Shown here piece after piece: positions 4,903-10,780 of a DNA stretch of 64,000 nt. Each line of letters starts with the position of its first letter. The stretch's first letter is position 1. The translations under genes were made by a program, and so were the position numbers. The DNA is from Alphaproteobacteria bacterium (GTDB taxonomy: Bacteria; Pseudomonadota; Alphaproteobacteria; UBA7985; JAUIBT01), in the NCBI GenBank assembly GCA_030428255.1, contig JAUIBT010000012.1, forward strand, positions 1 to 64,000. Reading direction: 5' to 3'. Under the pieces are notes generated by a model, which saw nothing but the letters and a program-made list of their open reading frames with translations, searched no databases and had not been told where the DNA came from.

Positions 4903-5448
4903 CTAGAGCTGAAGGGCCATGGCGATGCGGGTGCTGGGGTCCAGCTTCTTTTCAATCAGCTTTTGCCATTCGGCGCGCAGCACCGGGCCGCCCTCATCGG
5001 GCGCAATGGGCGCAAAGCCGCGCCGGGTGTAAAAGGGCGCGTTCCAAGCCACATCGACAAAGGTGGTCAGCGTCAAACGATGCAGGCCTTGCGCCCGCGC
5101 GTGCTCAGCCAAGCGCTCGATCAAGGCCGAAGCCAGGCCGCGCCCCTGCCAAGAGGGCAGGACATTCAGCTCGTCGATATGCAGATCATGCCCGCTGGGG
5201 CTGGCCAAAGCGAACCCGACCGGCCCCAACGTGAGGGCTGTTGCATCCAGGCCAATCCACACCCGACCGGCGCTCAGGGCTTGGCGATAGCTGGGCGGTC
5301 CTGGGATCTGGCGGTAGGCAACAAAGCGATAGGCGCTGGTGGTAAATTGGTGTGAGCAGGCAAATTCGATGGCTTGCAGGCGCAGCGCCAAATCGCGTCC
5401 CTCTGCGGGCTGCTCAAGGCGCCAGTGTGGCGGCAGTCGGCTTGCCAT
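4903..5448 (-). CDS. GNAT family N-acetyltransferase
   Basis: A 181-residue protein of the Gcn5-related acetyltransferase fold, which transfers acetyl from acetyl-CoA to an amine of unknown identity. The C-terminal half carries the beta-strand 'IDELNVLPSW' and the acetyl-CoA loop QGRGLAS (101-107), followed by 'ALIERLAEHARAQGLHRLTL' and a 'NAPFYTRRGFAPI' end typical of the family. It begins only 6 bases after the bolA stop on the same strand, so the two are probably co-transcribed. The substrate is not predictable. Confidence 0.85.
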   Translation of the reverse strand: MASRLPPHWRLEQPAEGRDLALRLQAIEFACSHQFTTSAYRFVAYRQIPGPPSYRQALSAGRVWIGLDATALTLGPVGFALASPSGHDLHIDELNVLPSWQGRGLASALIERLAEHARAQGLHRLTLTTFVDVAWNAPFYTRRGFAPIAPDEGGPVLRAEWQKLIEKKLDPSTRIAMALQL

Positions 5449-5736: not shown

Positions 5737-5970
5737 GGGGAGCCTCTAACGGGACGGCGCCAGGCAAGTGCGGGGGCGCGTGATGGGCGAACAATCCTCC
5801 GGCCATGGGCCTGAGTCAAGCCTGGCTGCCATGGTGCTCGCTTGGTTGCGTCACAAAGGCGAAGTCATGTTGCTGAGCGCTGGATTCGCGCTGCCAGATG
5901 CGCTACCATGGTTGTTCGCGTGCCTGCACTACCTCCAGGCCGCGCCAATTCGAACGCAACCCAGGGACTT

Positions 5971-6615
5971 ATGCGCAAAGCTTCGTCTGACGCCATCAAT
6001 GCGCCGTTTCAACGCGAACAGCAACGCAAGCGGGCCAATGGGTCGGCCTGTGACCATGCGGGCTGCCGCGAGCAGGGCGACTACAAGGCCCCCAAGCGTG
6101 GGCCGGGAGGGCGCGGGACGTTGCCGGGGCAGTACTGGCGGTTTTGCCTGGAGCACGTCAAAGCCTATAACTCCAACTGGAATTATTTTGAAGGCATGGG
6201 CCCGGCGCAAATGGAAGAGCAGCGCCGCGCCGATATCCTGTGGGGGCGCGAGACCTACCGCTTTGGCAGCGCCGACAACAAGCGCAAGAACCCCTACGCG
6301 TCGGGCGAGCCGCGCTTTAAGGACGATTTTGGCTTTTGGAACCAGCGCTTTGGCCACCAGCAAGACGAAGAGCGTGGCCCCTTTACCTCTGGCGTGGGCT
6401 TCAGCCTGACCCGCGAACAGCGCGAGGCTTTGGCCGTGCTGGGGTTGGATGCGCCCGTCACCGCTGACGAAGTGAAGAAGCGCTATCGCTTCTTGGCCAA
6501 GAAGTTGCACCCAGATTTGAACCCCGATAATCCACACGCTGAGACCCAGCTCAAGCAAGTCAACGACGCCTACAGCCAGGTGCGCAACGGCATCGGCGAG
6601 GCCGAAGCGGCCTAA
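5971..6615 (+). CDS. J-domain (DnaJ-like) molecular co-chaperone
   Basis: From the ATG at 5971 the protein has 214 residues. The C-terminal 70 residues form a J domain with the diagnostic HPD triad at 180-182, which stimulates DnaK ATPase. The N-terminal part holds a possible metal site, C27-x4-C32 and C59-x2-H62, in a pattern I recognise from the alphaproteobacterial protein next to bolA and cobS. The frame is open further upstream to 5842, but the family start 'MRKASSDAINAPF' and an AGGGA just before 5971 favour this start. The partner client is unknown. In related genomes cobS follows directly; here a two-gene cassette intervenes. Confidence 0.9.
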   Translation: MRKASSDAINAPFQREQQRKRANGSACDHAGCREQGDYKAPKRGPGGRGTLPGQYWRFCLEHVKAYNSNWNYFEGMGPAQMEEQRRADILWGRETYRFGSADNKRKNPYASGEPRFKDDFGFWNQRFGHQQDEERGPFTSGVGFSLTREQREALAVLGLDAPVTADEVKKRYRFLAKKLHPDLNPDNPHAETQLKQVNDAYSQVRNGIGEAEAA

Positions 6616-6626
6616 AGGCGCTAGGG

Positions 6627-7178
6627 CTACTCCACAGAGTCGGCAGCCATCTCTCGAGTTTCAACGATTGATCTTCGCGGAAGAATCATGAGGACTGGAA
6701 ACGTATCTGCATCTGTGAAGGGTACAAATCCAAGCTTGCAGTAAAATTTGCGTGTTTCTGGTGAAATAGCCCTCAAGGTCATTCCGAAGTACCCGACATT
6801 TTCTGCAATGAGTCCGGCACGATCAACGGCATCCATAAGCAAGTGTTCGCCTATTCCCTTCCCTTGCCACCCCCTGTTTACGCCGAGATATGGCATATAG
6901 ACCGCAGGGAATGCTTTCTCCGACTGAACGTGGGAGCCATTCTTGATTTTCGAAGGCAGCTCTGATGTTGGGTGCGCATCCATGCTTAAACAGTAATAGC
7001 CTAGTAGGGTTCCTGTTGGCTTTTCCCTGCCACAAAAAGTTATTGTTTGCCCTCGTTTGTGGTGTTTGCGAGCATCTTTTTTTATGAAGCGGTCCACGTC
7101 TCTAATCCCACATTCAAAATGCGGTGGGCGGGAATTGCCACAGATGTCCCAAAGTTTGCAGATCTCTATGTCAACCAT
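6627..7178 (-). CDS. GNAT acetyltransferase, TacT-like (possible toxin)
   Basis: The 183-residue protein resembles the TacT/KacT class of GNAT toxins, which acetylate aminoacyl-tRNA. It has the N-terminal 'FECGIRDVDRF' segment (21-31, cf. the F-x-C-G-x-x-x-L-D motif), 'GYYCLS' at 60-65, the acetyl-CoA loop QGKGIG (105-110) and the C-terminal 'FYCKLGF' with the Tyr at 146. Its start codon overlaps the end of the 72-residue upstream ORF by 8 bases, so the two form an operon. Base composition is visibly more AT-rich than the neighbours. The resemblance to TacT is seen; toxicity is inferred, and a free-standing acetyltransferase is possible. Confidence 0.75.
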   Translation of the reverse strand: MVDIEICKLWDICGNSRPPHFECGIRDVDRFIKKDARKHHKRGQTITFCGREKPTGTLLGYYCLSMDAHPTSELPSKIKNGSHVQSEKAFPAVYMPYLGVNRGWQGKGIGEHLLMDAVDRAGLIAENVGYFGMTLRAISPETRKFYCKLGFVPFTDADTFPVLMILPRRSIVETREMAADSVE

Positions 7179-7389
7179 CTGTAGTGGTCAAATGGCCTTT
7201 TGCTTTTGCTGCTTGGTATCTCTTGTACATGGCCCGAAGGTCCTCGGTTGGCCCGCCAGCCTCGTTGTAGGCACGATTAACAAACTCTTCGACTTCTTTT
7301 CGGGTCCGAAGTTTGTCTTTGCCGTTGTGCTTGGCCAGGCTGTTCCACCATCTAGCGAACAATTTGGTTGAGTATGTATATCCAAACAT
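7171..7389 (-). CDS. 72-residue unknown protein, candidate antitoxin of the GNAT
   Basis: A small, highly charged, mostly helical-looking protein with aromatic residues near the N-terminus (WW at 14-15) and the central segment 'TRKEVEEFVNRAY'. I do not recognise the family. TacT-type GNATs are usually preceded by a ribbon-helix-helix (DUF1778-type) antitoxin of about 90 residues; this protein is in the right place and translationally coupled (8-base overlap) but does not look like DUF1778. Start ATG at 7387-7389 with a weak AAGG further upstream. It could be a new antitoxin class, an unrelated small protein, or a transcription regulator. Confidence 0.6.
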   Translation of the reverse strand: MFGYTYSTKLFARWWNSLAKHNGKDKLRTRKEVEEFVNRAYNEAGGPTEDLRAMYKRYQAAKAKGHLTTTDG

Positions 7390-7831
7390 GAGTGTTTGTT
7401 GCCTTCATGACTTTGCGTAGCGGGAGCGTATCACCACCAACGGTAGTGCAGATTATCAAAGGTATGGTGATATGTCAGCATCGCGCTACCTCACATTGCT
7501 ATCACAAATTGTAATGCCTGCCGAAATTGGAGGGTAATAGCTAGCAATTGCATTTCTATCTTGACGACTCGGAGAAAGCGAGCCGCGACGCTGCGCGCTA
7601 AATTCAGCCGCCTTTGGGCTTGCGTCGATTTGGACAAGAGGTCTAGAAAGAGACCCGGTTTCTCTTGGGCCGCGCGCTTCTTATATCAAGGGCAGCGCTG
7701 GCACTTGTGCTTGTCAAAGCAGAGCGCTTGCGAGCCTTGGTGTTCGCGACCAGCTTTGCCGCTCTCTTTCACCCGCTGGCAGCTCGGCACGGCGCGATCC
7801 GTGTGGCCTGCAACTGAACTAAAGGTCTTCC
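7390..7831. other. Intergenic region upstream of cobS, AT-rich then GC-rich
   Basis: The first 170 bases are AT-rich like the GNAT cassette and should hold its promoter; I could not pick convincing boxes. From about 7560 the composition returns to that of the chromosome. No convincing gene is seen, nor anything with the conserved parts of a cobalamin riboswitch. Confidence 0.5.
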
Positions 7832-8818
7832 ATGTCTCAAGCATTCGCTGACTCGCGTTTCGCCCTCCAGCATCCCAACACAGAGTTCGACAGCATGGAG
7901 CTGTTCGGTGTCGATATGGGCATGATCAAGGGTTTCTCTGAGCCCAACGATTACGTGCCAGACGTTGATCCTGACTATCGCTTTGACCCCGAGACTACGG
8001 CGGCCATTCTGGTGGGTTTCCAGCACAATCGCCGCGTGATGATTCAAGGCTATCACGGCACCGGCAAATCAACCCACATCGAGCAAGTCGCCGCCCGCCT
8101 GAACTGGCCCTGTGTGCGCATCAACCTGGACAGCCACATCAGCCGTATCGACCTGATCGGCAAGGACGCCATCGTGCTGCGCGACGGCAAGCAGGTGACT
8201 GAATTCCGCGAAGGCATGCTGCCTTGGGCGCTGCAAAACCCCGTAGCGCTGGTGTTTGACGAGTACGATGCAGGCCGCCCGGACGTGATGTTCGTCATTC
8301 AGCGTATTCTGGAAGTCTCCGGCAAGCTGACCCTGCTGGACCAGAATAAAGTCATCACTCCGCACCCCGATTTCCGCCTGTTTGCCACCGCCAACACCGT
8401 TGGTCTGGGCGATACCTCGGGCCTGTACCACGGCACCCAGCAGATCAACCAGGGCCAGATGGACCGTTGGTCGATCGTCACCCAGCTCAACTACCTGGAG
8501 CACGACCGCGAAGTGGATATCGTCGCTAGCAAGGTCGGCTCGATGAACACCGAGCAAGGCCGCGCGCAGCTTTCAAGCATGGTGGCTATGGCCGATTTGA
8601 CCCGTAAAGGCTTCATGGCAGGCGACGTCTCAACTGTGATGTCGCCGCGTACCGTGCTGACCTGGGCTCAGAACGCTGAGATCTTTGGCAACGTGGACCT
8701 GGCCTTTAGAGTGACCTTCCTCAACAAGTCCGACGAGCTGGAGCGCAGCACCTTCGCTGAATACTATCAGCGCGCCATGGGCCGCGAGCTGGCTGGCGTT
8801 TCGGCCATCGCGGCTTAA
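7832..8818 (+). CDS. cobS: Aerobic cobaltochelatase subunit CobS (AAA+ ATPase)
   Basis: CobS is the ATPase ring of the CobN-CobS-CobT complex that inserts cobalt into hydrogenobyrinate a,c-diamide in oxygen-dependent B12 synthesis. The 328 residues include a Walker A loop GYHGTGKST (73-81), a Walker B segment 'ALVFDEYDAG' (139-148) and an N-terminal 'MELFGVDMGMIKGF' region typical of the family. Length is normal. cobT follows after 105 bases. The catalytic CobN subunit is not in this window. Do not confuse it with the cobalamin synthase also named cobS at 13889. Confidence 0.97.
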   Translation: MSQAFADSRFALQHPNTEFDSMELFGVDMGMIKGFSEPNDYVPDVDPDYRFDPETTAAILVGFQHNRRVMIQGYHGTGKSTHIEQVAARLNWPCVRINLDSHISRIDLIGKDAIVLRDGKQVTEFREGMLPWALQNPVALVFDEYDAGRPDVMFVIQRILEVSGKLTLLDQNKVITPHPDFRLFATANTVGLGDTSGLYHGTQQINQGQMDRWSIVTQLNYLEHDREVDIVASKVGSMNTEQGRAQLSSMVAMADLTRKGFMAGDVSTVMSPRTVLTWAQNAEIFGNVDLAFRVTFLNKSDELERSTFAEYYQRAMGRELAGVSAIAA

Positions 8819-8923: not shown

Positions 8924-10780
8924 ATGTCAAGCAAGAGCAAATCTCCCCAATTAGAAGAGCTAAGGCGCGCAACCGGTGCAGCCCTGCGGGCCGTGGCCGG
9001 TGTGCAGGAGTTGGACGCCGTTTTCGCAGCGCAAGCCCGGGGCAAGATCGGTCGCGAGGTCTATTTGCCCTCGCCGGGGTTGGAGCTGGAGCCCGAAGCG
9101 GTGGCTCTGATGCGCGGCCAGGCCGACAAGGAAGCGGTCAAGCTGCGCTACCACAACCCTGCTCTGCATCGCGAGCGAGCGCCAGGCGACCCGGACGCGC
9201 GCGCCATCTTCGACGCGCTGGAGCAAGCCCGCTTTGAGGCTGCAGGGGCGCTGCGCTATGAGGGCGTGGGTGACAACCTGCAAGCCGCACTGGCCGACGA
9301 GTGCCGCCGCAAAAACCTGGTGGTGGCGCAAAGCCAAGACGATGTGAGCATGTCTGAGGTGCTGCGACTCATGGCCTATGAAGCCATGACCGGTCGCGGG
9401 TTGCCCGACAGCGCCGCGCCAGCGCTGGAGGTGTGGCGTGATCAGTTGCCCGAGCATCTGACCCAGCGCTTTGATGCCCTGAAAGACAGCGTTTATCAGC
9501 AGTCCGACTACCAGCAGGTGATCAAAGACATCCTGAGCGATTTGAGTTTTGATGTGGAGGATCTGAGCGACTTTGATCCCGACGATGCGCAAGACGAGCA
9601 ACAGGACGCCGACGACGCCGACCAGTCCGACCAGCAGTCGCAGGGCGAGGCCGAGAGCCAAGACGATAGTGCCAGCGTTGAGCTGGAAGCCGGTGAGGAC
9701 CAATCGGGCGAGACTGACGAGAGCCAGCAGAGCCAAGAGCAATACGCCGAAGACGTGACCGGTGGTGGCGACGATGAGGACAGCGATGCGTCGGACACGC
9801 CCCCGCCCTATACACCGCCGGACCACAACTTGGGCAAAGACAAAGAATATCAGGTCTTTACCACCAAGTTTGACGAAATTGTCACCGCCGATGAGCTGTG
9901 CGACGCTGACGAGCTGACCCGCCTGCGCGAGCTGCTGGATAAGGAAATGGAGCACCTGCGCGGCCTGATCTCAAAGATCGCCAACCGTTTGCAGCGCCGC
10001 CTTATGGCGCAGCAACAGCGCGCTTGGCACTTCAACCTGGAAGAAGGCATGCTGGACACCGCGCGCCTGGATCGCGTGATCGTCGATGTGACCTCGCCCC
10101 TGTCGTTCAAGCAGGAGAGCGAGACCGAATTCCGCGATACCGTGGTGACTTTGTTGATCGACAACTCGGGTTCGATGCGAGGGCGGCCGATTTCAACCGC
10201 TGCCGCCTGTGCCGACATCCTGGCCCGCACGCTGGAGCGCTGCGCGGTCAAGGTCGAGATTTTGGGCTTCACCACCCGCATGTGGAAGGGTGGCTCGTCA
10301 CGCGATGCGTGGATCGAGGCGGGCAAGCCGCGCAATCCTGGCCGCCTGAACGACCTGCGTCACATCATCTATAAGGCCGCCGATGCGCCCTGGCGGCGCG
10401 CGCGCAAGAACCTGGGTCTCATGCTGCGCGAAGGCATCTTGAAAGAGAACATCGATGGCGAGGCGCTGGCTTGGGCCTACGACCGCATCTCGGTCCGCCC
10501 CGAGCACCGCAAGATTTTGATGGTGATCTCGGACGGCGCGCCGGTCGACGAGACCACGCTGTCGAACAACCATGCTGCCTATCTGGAGCGCCATTTGCGC
10601 GAGCAGATCGACATGATCGAGAACCGCAGCAAGGTCGAGCTGGTGGCGATTGGTATCGGCCACGACGTGACCCGCTATTACAAGCGCGCGGTGACCATCA
10701 CCCAGCCCGAGCAGTTGGGCTCGACCATGATGGGTGAGCTCTTGTCACTGTTCGACGAGAAAGACGCGCGGAATAAGTAG
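8924..10780 (+). CDS. cobT: Aerobic cobaltochelatase subunit CobT (VWA protein)
   Basis: CobT partners CobS in the ATP-dependent cobaltochelatase. The 618 residues have an N-terminal helical part, a long acidic Asp/Glu/Gln/Ser-rich linker (about 215-295) and a C-terminal von Willebrand A domain with the metal-ion-dependent adhesion site DNSGS beginning at Asp413. The layout and length match CobT of alphaproteobacteria. It lies 105 bases after cobS in the same direction and they are probably one operon. It is distinct from the NaMN:DMB phosphoribosyltransferase, also called cobT, at 14858. Confidence 0.96.

What the first reader, a model, noticed from the sequence alone, without database searches (positions are those of the whole stretch)
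6627..7389. GNAT toxin-like gene coupled to an unrecognised 72-residue protein, inserted between the J-domain gene and cobS
Seen: a TacT-like GNAT (F-x-C-G start, QGKGIG loop, C-terminal FY) whose ATG overlaps the stop of a 72-residue ORF by 8 bases, in visibly AT-richer DNA that splits an otherwise conserved bolA/J-protein-cobS-cobT neighbourhood. Known: TacT-type toxins acetylate aminoacyl-tRNA and are usually preceded by a DUF1778-type ribbon-helix-helix antitoxin. Inferred: the small protein holds the antitoxin position but does not look like DUF1778, so this may be a new toxin-antitoxin pairing or a diverged one.
Basis: partly seen in the sequence, partly recalled or inferred. Interest (0 to 1): 0.55.

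Follow-up and report, generated by a model that had tools for sequence, protein, structure and literature searches.

The report
Probable toxin–antitoxin pair, new antitoxin family
A small mobile two-gene unit pairs a well-known type of bacterial growth-arresting enzyme with a tiny protein family that no library describes, which probably acts as its antidote and would show that these enzymes can be controlled by a different kind of partner than the usual one.

Summary
A 183-residue GNAT (6627-7178, -) follows, with an 8-base overlap, a 72-residue ORF (7171-7389, -), in the most AT-rich stretch of the window (48% against 61% GC). The GNAT belongs by sequence, predicted fold and catalytic tyrosine to the TacT/AtaT/KacT toxins. 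The small protein matches no curated family. I found it at 13 distinct alphaproteobacterial loci; in 13 of 13 it lies directly upstream of such a GNAT (one frameshifted), and it is under purifying selection. All 30 comparison GNATs have a TacA1 (DUF1778) partner instead. GNATs with the small partner group together on a tree. In two same-genus relatives the site holds a different gene, a DUF2971 defence candidate, so it is a cargo-exchange site. Most likely this is a mobile GNAT toxin–antitoxin module whose antitoxin family is not catalogued. Its second half weakly resembles the toxin-binding C-terminus of TacA antitoxins, suggesting an antitoxin reduced to the neutralising part; a diverged ribbon-helix-helix is the main rival. 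Toxicity and neutralisation are not shown. A 2022 paper already noted that such unidentified short partners exist, so this is a new variant of a known kind.

The parts
6627..7178 (-). GNAT acetyltransferase of the TacT/AtaT/KacT toxin family, 183 aa; putative toxin; Y146 aligns with the catalytic tyrosine
7171..7389 (-). 72-aa protein of an uncatalogued family (F-x-R-W-W ... [KR]-[TSN]-x-[RK]-E-A-x-x-F-V-x-R-x-[YQ]-N-x-x-G-G-P in most members); putative antitoxin
7171..7178 (-). 8-base overlap of the small ORF's end with the GNAT's start (likely translational coupling)
6619..7615 (.). exchanged segment: absent from two same-genus genomes, which hold a DUF2971 gene at this place; low GC
7429..7472 (.). 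inverted repeat TATCACCA/TGGTGATA (28 nt between arms) upstream of the small ORF; possible operator, but compatible with chance and not shared by the other loci
5842..6615 (+). context: J-domain gene, left flank of the exchanged segment (ATG at 5971 is a likelier start)
7832..8818 (+). context: cobS, right flank
8924..10780 (+). context: cobT

Best explanation
A mobile two-gene toxin–antitoxin module. Step 1 (strongly supported by computation): the GNAT is a TacT/AtaT/KacT-type toxin. Step 2 (inferred from its family, as described in the papers cited): free toxin acetylates charged tRNAs and stops translation. Step 3 (inferred from fixed gene order, overlap and single-lineage pairing): the upstream 72-residue protein, made first from the same message, binds the toxin and keeps it inactive. 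Step 4 (weak evidence): it binds through its C-terminal helix - GGP(N/T) turn - helix (about residues 29-65), which resembles the toxin-binding C-terminal half of TacA1 antitoxins; the N-terminal FxRWW helix replaces the usual DNA-binding domain. The module sits in a cargo-exchange site between the J gene and cobS and was probably acquired horizontally. My confidence is about 0.65-0.7 for steps 1-3 together, and about 0.4 for step 4.
For: GNAT: the 16 PDB sequences matched at E below 1e-6 are GNAT toxins, best 7f37 (AtaT2-AtaR2) at 5.7e-17 (titles). The first 38 Foldseek rows for its model are GNAT-toxin structures (TacT, AtaT, KacT, GmvT and a 'bacterial toxin' 7byy) at E up to 1e-10, and the next row is at 1.8e-6. 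Y146 aligns with the residue that is Y in wild-type KacT and F in the Y145F mutant and is invariant in 12 of 12. Pairing: 13 of 13 distinct loci, with overlaps of 4-65 nt in 10 of 12 and gaps of 5 and 18 nt in two, by my choice of starts. Comparison partners: PF08681 TacA1 in 30 of 30, two of them below the curated cut-off; small family 0 of 13. Tree: one side of a branch, support 62/84; 100/99 without three long rows. Purifying selection on the small ORF. Horizontal gain: GC and a different gene at the site in 2 of 2 relatives. C-half similarity: hhalign score 17.0, E 0.0032; 0 of 300 column shuffles and 0 of 25 decoys as high; 18.2 with the whole antitoxin, aligned to its C-half, 0 of 600.
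Against: No toxicity, neutralisation or binding was measured. The hhalign probability is only 5-10%, the reversed small-protein alignment scored 15.2 against 18.2, and an HMM of the TacA1 C-half does not pick out the small proteins among 1980 ORFs (best, L002, rank 56, E 9.6). The small protein also shows weak similarity to the ribbon-helix-helix half (14.9) and to Arc repressor. The model of the small protein is poor (pLDDT 64). Only 13 loci were found, all alphaproteobacterial where the organism is told, and they were found with profiles of the paired small proteins, so unpaired, more diverged relatives could have been missed.
Confidence: 0.65

Rival explanations
1. The small protein is a strongly diverged ribbon-helix-helix (Arc-like) antitoxin: strand at about 23-28, helices at 30-44 and 49-63, binding the operator as a dimer, with the N-terminal FxRWW helix holding the toxin. 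The pair is then a classical autoregulated type II system with an unusual domain order.
For: Profile search of PDB sequences puts Arc first (pArc, 1u9p, E 0.0035, two copies of the match in one chain; five further Arc-family chains at E 0.5-0.84) in the ribbon-helix-helix register (the secondary structure of Arc is recalled). The model has a coil at 23-29 followed by two helices of 15. hhalign against the RHH half of TacA1 gives 14.9, E 0.025, 0 of 300 shuffles. 12 of 13 proteins have pI above 7, window 9.8. The window has an 8-nt perfect inverted repeat upstream. One PHROG 'Arc-like repressor' match at E 0.21.
Against: Single Arc chains score only E 0.5 and worse, so this is about one chance-level observation plus its duplicates. 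Mitochondrial ribosomal protein S21 scores similarly (E 0.07). No Pfam RHH family was hit by any of 13 members. Upstream inverted repeats exceed shuffles (at most 5%) in 3 of 13 loci only, with no shared sequence seen. No strand in the model, though a monomer model could miss it.
Confidence: 0.27
2. Not a toxin–antitoxin pair: the GNAT acetylates a protein or small molecule, and the small protein is its substrate, activator or chaperone.
For: The GNAT lineage lies apart from the TacA1-partnered GNATs, and Bikmetov et al. 2022 say that GNATs outside their 'true TA clade' may have evolved other functions (PMC9177977, passages). A GNAT toxin acting through the regulator Fur has been reported (PMC9561280, title and abstract start only).
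Against: The fold and residue features of the tRNA-acetylating toxins are kept, together with overlapping order, patchy spread and mobile context (L002 is on a plasmid between insertion sequences). In L044 the small gene is intact while the GNAT is frameshifted, the direction expected for a toxin, though n = 1 and it may be a sequencing error.
Confidence: 0.15
3. The 72-residue ORF is a spurious reading frame and the GNAT has no partner.
For: It matches no curated family.
Against: Relatives at 13 loci, third-position excess in 7 of 7 pairs compared, annotated as a gene in the Methylobacterium plasmid.
Confidence: 0.01

Closest known systems
TacAT / AtaRT / KacAT: GNAT toxin with TacA1 (DUF1778, PF08681) antitoxin
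   Same: Toxin fold, FxCG start, acetyl-CoA loop, catalytic tyrosine, antitoxin-position gene directly upstream and overlapping.
   Different: Partner is 67-81 residues (122 in L046) instead of about 86-124 in the comparison loci, has no recognisable TacA1 domain or N-terminal RHH, and the GNATs form a separate group on the tree.
VcaAT: GNAT toxin with DUF4065 antitoxin (Bikmetov et al. 2022, PMC9177977, section 16 read)
   Same: A GNAT toxin whose usual antitoxin has been replaced by an unrelated protein; toxicity and rescue were shown there.
   Different: No DUF4065 match here.
Unidentified short ORFs before GNATs outside the 'true TA clade' (same paper, discussion passages)
   Same: Described there as bicistronic, TA-like, with divergent short ORFs lacking predictable DNA-binding domains; this locus fits the description.
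   Different: The text that I read gives no family, sequence or locus that I could match, so identity with those loci is not shown.

Membership tests
TacAT-type GNAT/DUF1778 toxin–antitoxin system | Toxin of the TacT/AtaT/KacT GNAT group | tested here: met
   PDB sequence search and Foldseek gap from 1e-10 to 1.8e-6
TacAT-type GNAT/DUF1778 toxin–antitoxin system | Catalytic tyrosine and acetyl-CoA loop | tested here: met
   Y146 aligned with KacT Y145, QGKGIG loop aligned; Y146 invariant in 12 of 12
TacAT-type GNAT/DUF1778 toxin–antitoxin system | Antitoxin of the TacA1/DUF1778 family (PF08681) | tested here: not met
   0 of 13 members hit PF08681, 30 of 30 comparison partners do; only weak profile similarity to its C-half
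TacAT-type GNAT/DUF1778 toxin–antitoxin system | Small gene directly upstream, overlapping or adjacent | tested here: met
   13 of 13 loci
TacAT-type GNAT/DUF1778 toxin–antitoxin system | Toxicity by acetylating aminoacyl-tRNA, neutralised by the partner | not testable with these tools
   needs expression and LC/MS
Ribbon-helix-helix antitoxins | Strand-helix-helix DNA-binding fold | tested here: inconclusive
   Poor model with three helices, no fold match, weak Arc-register similarity
GNAT/DUF4065 (VcaAT) | DUF4065 antitoxin | tested here: not met
   No DUF4065 among Pfam matches of 13 members
GNAT/Xre pairs (Makarova et al. 2009) | Xre/Cro helix-turn-helix antitoxin | tested here: not met
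   No HTH family among Pfam matches of 13 members

The most novel reading that the evidence does not exclude
GNAT toxins of this lineage are controlled by a minimal antitoxin that keeps only the toxin-binding half of the TacA type and has lost the DNA-binding ribbon-helix-helix, gaining an N-terminal FxRWW helix; the module therefore neutralises without the classical promoter autoregulation.
Probability: 0.3. Interest if true: 0.62.

Novelty: new variant of a known kind. Interest (0 to 1): 0.48.

Why it matters
Bikmetov et al. 2022 left open whether GNATs beside unidentified short ORFs are toxins with unknown antitoxins or have other functions (PMC9177977). This gives one defined partner family, 13 loci and a tree position, so the question can be tested with one expression experiment. 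It would also widen annotation: searches that look for DUF1778 or DUF4065 neighbours miss this module.

Tried and rejected
Family libraries gave nothing curated for the small protein: Pfam, NCBIfam, PADLOC and Pfam on 13 members; PHROG_30067 at E 0.014 for the window member only was not pursued. PDB sequence search with the single protein: best E 1. Fold searches with the small model: Foldseek best E 4.7, VIA-align best Z 3.8 to pyrin domains, not meaningful for a model at pLDDT 64; no antitoxin was listed, which shows nothing.

Searches of phages and IMG/VR contigs for the small protein found none, so no phage carrier is known. GNAT relatives in IMG/VR (L040, L041) have TacA1-type partners and sit on very long branches.

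Rows dropped: L009 (match at E 0.007 inside a 722-aa frame) and L063 (E 4.4e-4, reads across a stop inside other frames) were judged false. L052 is the same contig as L006 (contig length). Matches other than L047's genome and L063 repeat places under new handles. Of the GNAT places listed, only the 30 that were given loci (28 besides the window and G198) were examined for partners. L046 was left out of the profile-profile tests and of the small structure alignment because of its long N-terminus.

Operator idea: upstream inverted repeats were compared with mononucleotide shuffles only; 3 of 13 loci exceed at 5% or less (window 0.05, L046 0.017, L050 0.0) with no common sequence seen. The intended comparison with TacA1 loci was not run. 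Sigma-70 scan: none found. The HMM cross-search was negative from the TacA1 side; from the small-protein side the best-scoring non-relatives included the TacA1 partners L040 (E 0.094), L041 (0.51), L023 (0.63) and L014 (2.5), none significant.

Full report
What is in the sequence. On the minus strand, between a J-domain gene (ending 6615) and cobS (from 7832), lie a 72-residue ORF (7171-7389) and a 183-residue GNAT (6627-7178) that overlap by 8 bases. Both run against the flanking genes. The pair is 48.2% GC where the window averages 61.3%, and lies in the lowest-GC stretch of its length in the window; third-position GC is 0.48 and 0.52 against 0.72-0.78 in the J gene, cobS and cobT. The genome holds one copy of the small protein.

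The GNAT. Against PDB sequences the 16 matches at E below 1e-6 are known GNAT toxins, best 7f37 (AtaT2-AtaR2, 5.7e-17), then 7ak7 (TacT2) and KacT (names). A model with 11 aligned sequences has mean pLDDT 84 and pTM 0.81; its first 38 Foldseek rows are GNAT-toxin structures at E up to 1e-10, and the next row is at 1.8e-6. In the alignments, query Y146 stands against the residue that is Y in KacT and F in the Y145F mutant entry. F145 and Y146 are invariant in the 12 intact relatives. That this tyrosine is catalytic is recalled and fits the mutants' titles; I did not read the structure papers. In PHROGs the GNAT matches phrog_1758, acetyltransferase, at 1e-23.

The small protein. It matches nothing in Pfam, NCBIfam or PADLOC, and PHROG_30067 only at E 0.014. 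A 28%-identical relative turned up on a Methylobacterium plasmid, annotated as a hypothetical protein whose stop overlaps a GNAT start. Profile searches then found one in G198 and five more in 298 genomes of its family, and the single genome-contig scan gave five more besides G198's own contig: Microvirga aerophila, a Methylobacterium MAG, a Pseudolabrys MAG, Aquamicrobium defluvii and Mesorhizobium intechi. That makes 13 distinct loci. In 13 of 13 the next gene on the same strand is a GNAT of this group; in L044 the GNAT is frameshifted. With my choice of starts the genes overlap by 4-65 nt in 10 of 12 and are 5 and 18 nt apart in two. In seven of seven pairs of small ORFs compared, differences concentrate at third codon positions, with dN 0.18-0.41 and dS too large to compute in six. 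The small ORF is therefore a real, selected protein. It is rare: 2 of 385 class genomes, 2 real of 398 phylum genomes, 6 of 298 in one family, 2 of 240 with the larger profile; these sets overlap.

Comparison partners. A GNAT profile search of 385 class genomes returned 30 loci for the best places. Apart from the window and G198, the 28 others and two IMG/VR contigs all have an upstream ORF (read off) that matches TacA1 (PF08681, the DUF1778 antitoxin), 30 of 30 at E up to 0.05, two of them (L015, L027) below the curated cut-off. None of the 13 small proteins matches PF08681. The tree of 48 GNATs holds 12 with the small partner and 36 others: these 30, five from named plasmids annotated with DUF1778 partners, and one from a phage whose partner is unnamed and was not tested (L069). 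The small-partner GNATs are one side of a branch with support 62/84. Without three long-branch rows (L046, L040, L041) support is 100/99. The root is not known, so I cannot say whether this lineage lies inside or outside the 'true TA clade' of Bikmetov et al. 2022.

The site. In two same-genus genomes the flanks are conserved: the J gene's end, cobS and the start of cobT in G002; cobS and cobT's start in G001, whose contig ends early. The gap holds a DUF2971 gene (G002) or its remnant cut by a DUF772/DDE transposase (G001) instead of the GNAT pair. The G002 DUF2971 protein matches PADLOC PDC-S31 at 7e-27. The place is therefore a site where small accessory modules are exchanged, and the pair was probably gained horizontally. 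Which state is ancestral is not known.

How it probably works. By family knowledge (Bikmetov et al. 2022, section 16 read) GNAT toxins acetylate aminoacyl-tRNA and block growth, and a partner encoded beside them relieves this. I infer the same here. For the small protein's mode of action the evidence is weak and points two ways. Profile-profile comparison aligns its residues about 29-66 with the C-terminal half of TacA1 antitoxins (score 18.2 against whole antitoxins, none of 600 column shuffles as high; 17.0 with E 0.0032 against the C-half alone, none of 300 shuffles and none of 25 decoy segments as high). PDB titles show that C-terminal peptides of TacA and AtaR are bound to their toxins, so a stand-alone version could neutralise. 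But the hhalign probability is only 5-10%, the reversed alignment scored 15.2 against the whole antitoxins, and the reciprocal HMM search was negative. The same region also scores 14.9 against the ribbon-helix-helix half, and a PDB profile search puts Arc repressor first (E 0.0035 for pArc, which matches twice; 0.5-0.84 for single Arc-family chains). The model, with three helices at 5-22, 30-44 and 49-63, is poor and cannot decide.

What is in print. Six literature searches found no description of this partner family; only open-licence PMC papers were searched. Bikmetov et al. 2022 report DUF4065 as a second antitoxin type and state that some GNATs outside the main clade follow divergent short ORFs lacking predictable DNA-binding domains, which either are unidentified antitoxins or reflect other functions (passages). 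Makarova et al. 2009 list GNAT-RHH and GNAT-Xre pairs (passages). The finding gives a concrete family for that open class.

Verdict. Real, conserved, mobile, and best read as a GNAT toxin–antitoxin module with an uncatalogued antitoxin: a new variant of a known kind. Function remains to be shown.

Noticed in passing
L004 262-1146 (-) and L005 2876-3031 (+): In both same-genus relatives the J-gene/cobS gap carries a DUF2971 gene (the G002 copy is related to PADLOC candidate PDC-S31); in G001 it is truncated by a DUF772/DDE transposase. The gap looks like a small hotspot for defence or addiction modules.
   Followed up: partly
L027 2001-2315 (-) and L015 1224-1481 (+): Two GNAT partners match TacA1 weakly and mainly over its C-terminal part (profile 35-78 and 46-79 of 80), with N-termini that do not look like RHH: possible further cases of antitoxins that lost the DNA-binding half.
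   Followed up: partly
L044 1658-2214: The GNAT next to an intact small gene appears frameshifted into two frames (1658-1966 and 1876-2214): decay of a toxin with retained antitoxin, or a sequencing error.
   Followed up: no
L046 1312-1680: A 122-residue version of the small protein with a long basic N-terminal extension; its GNAT is on a very long branch.
   Followed up: no
window 4903-5448 (-): A second, ordinary GNAT (PF00583, 5.5e-15) lies nearby beside the bolA-like gene; it is unrelated to the toxin pair.
   Followed up: no
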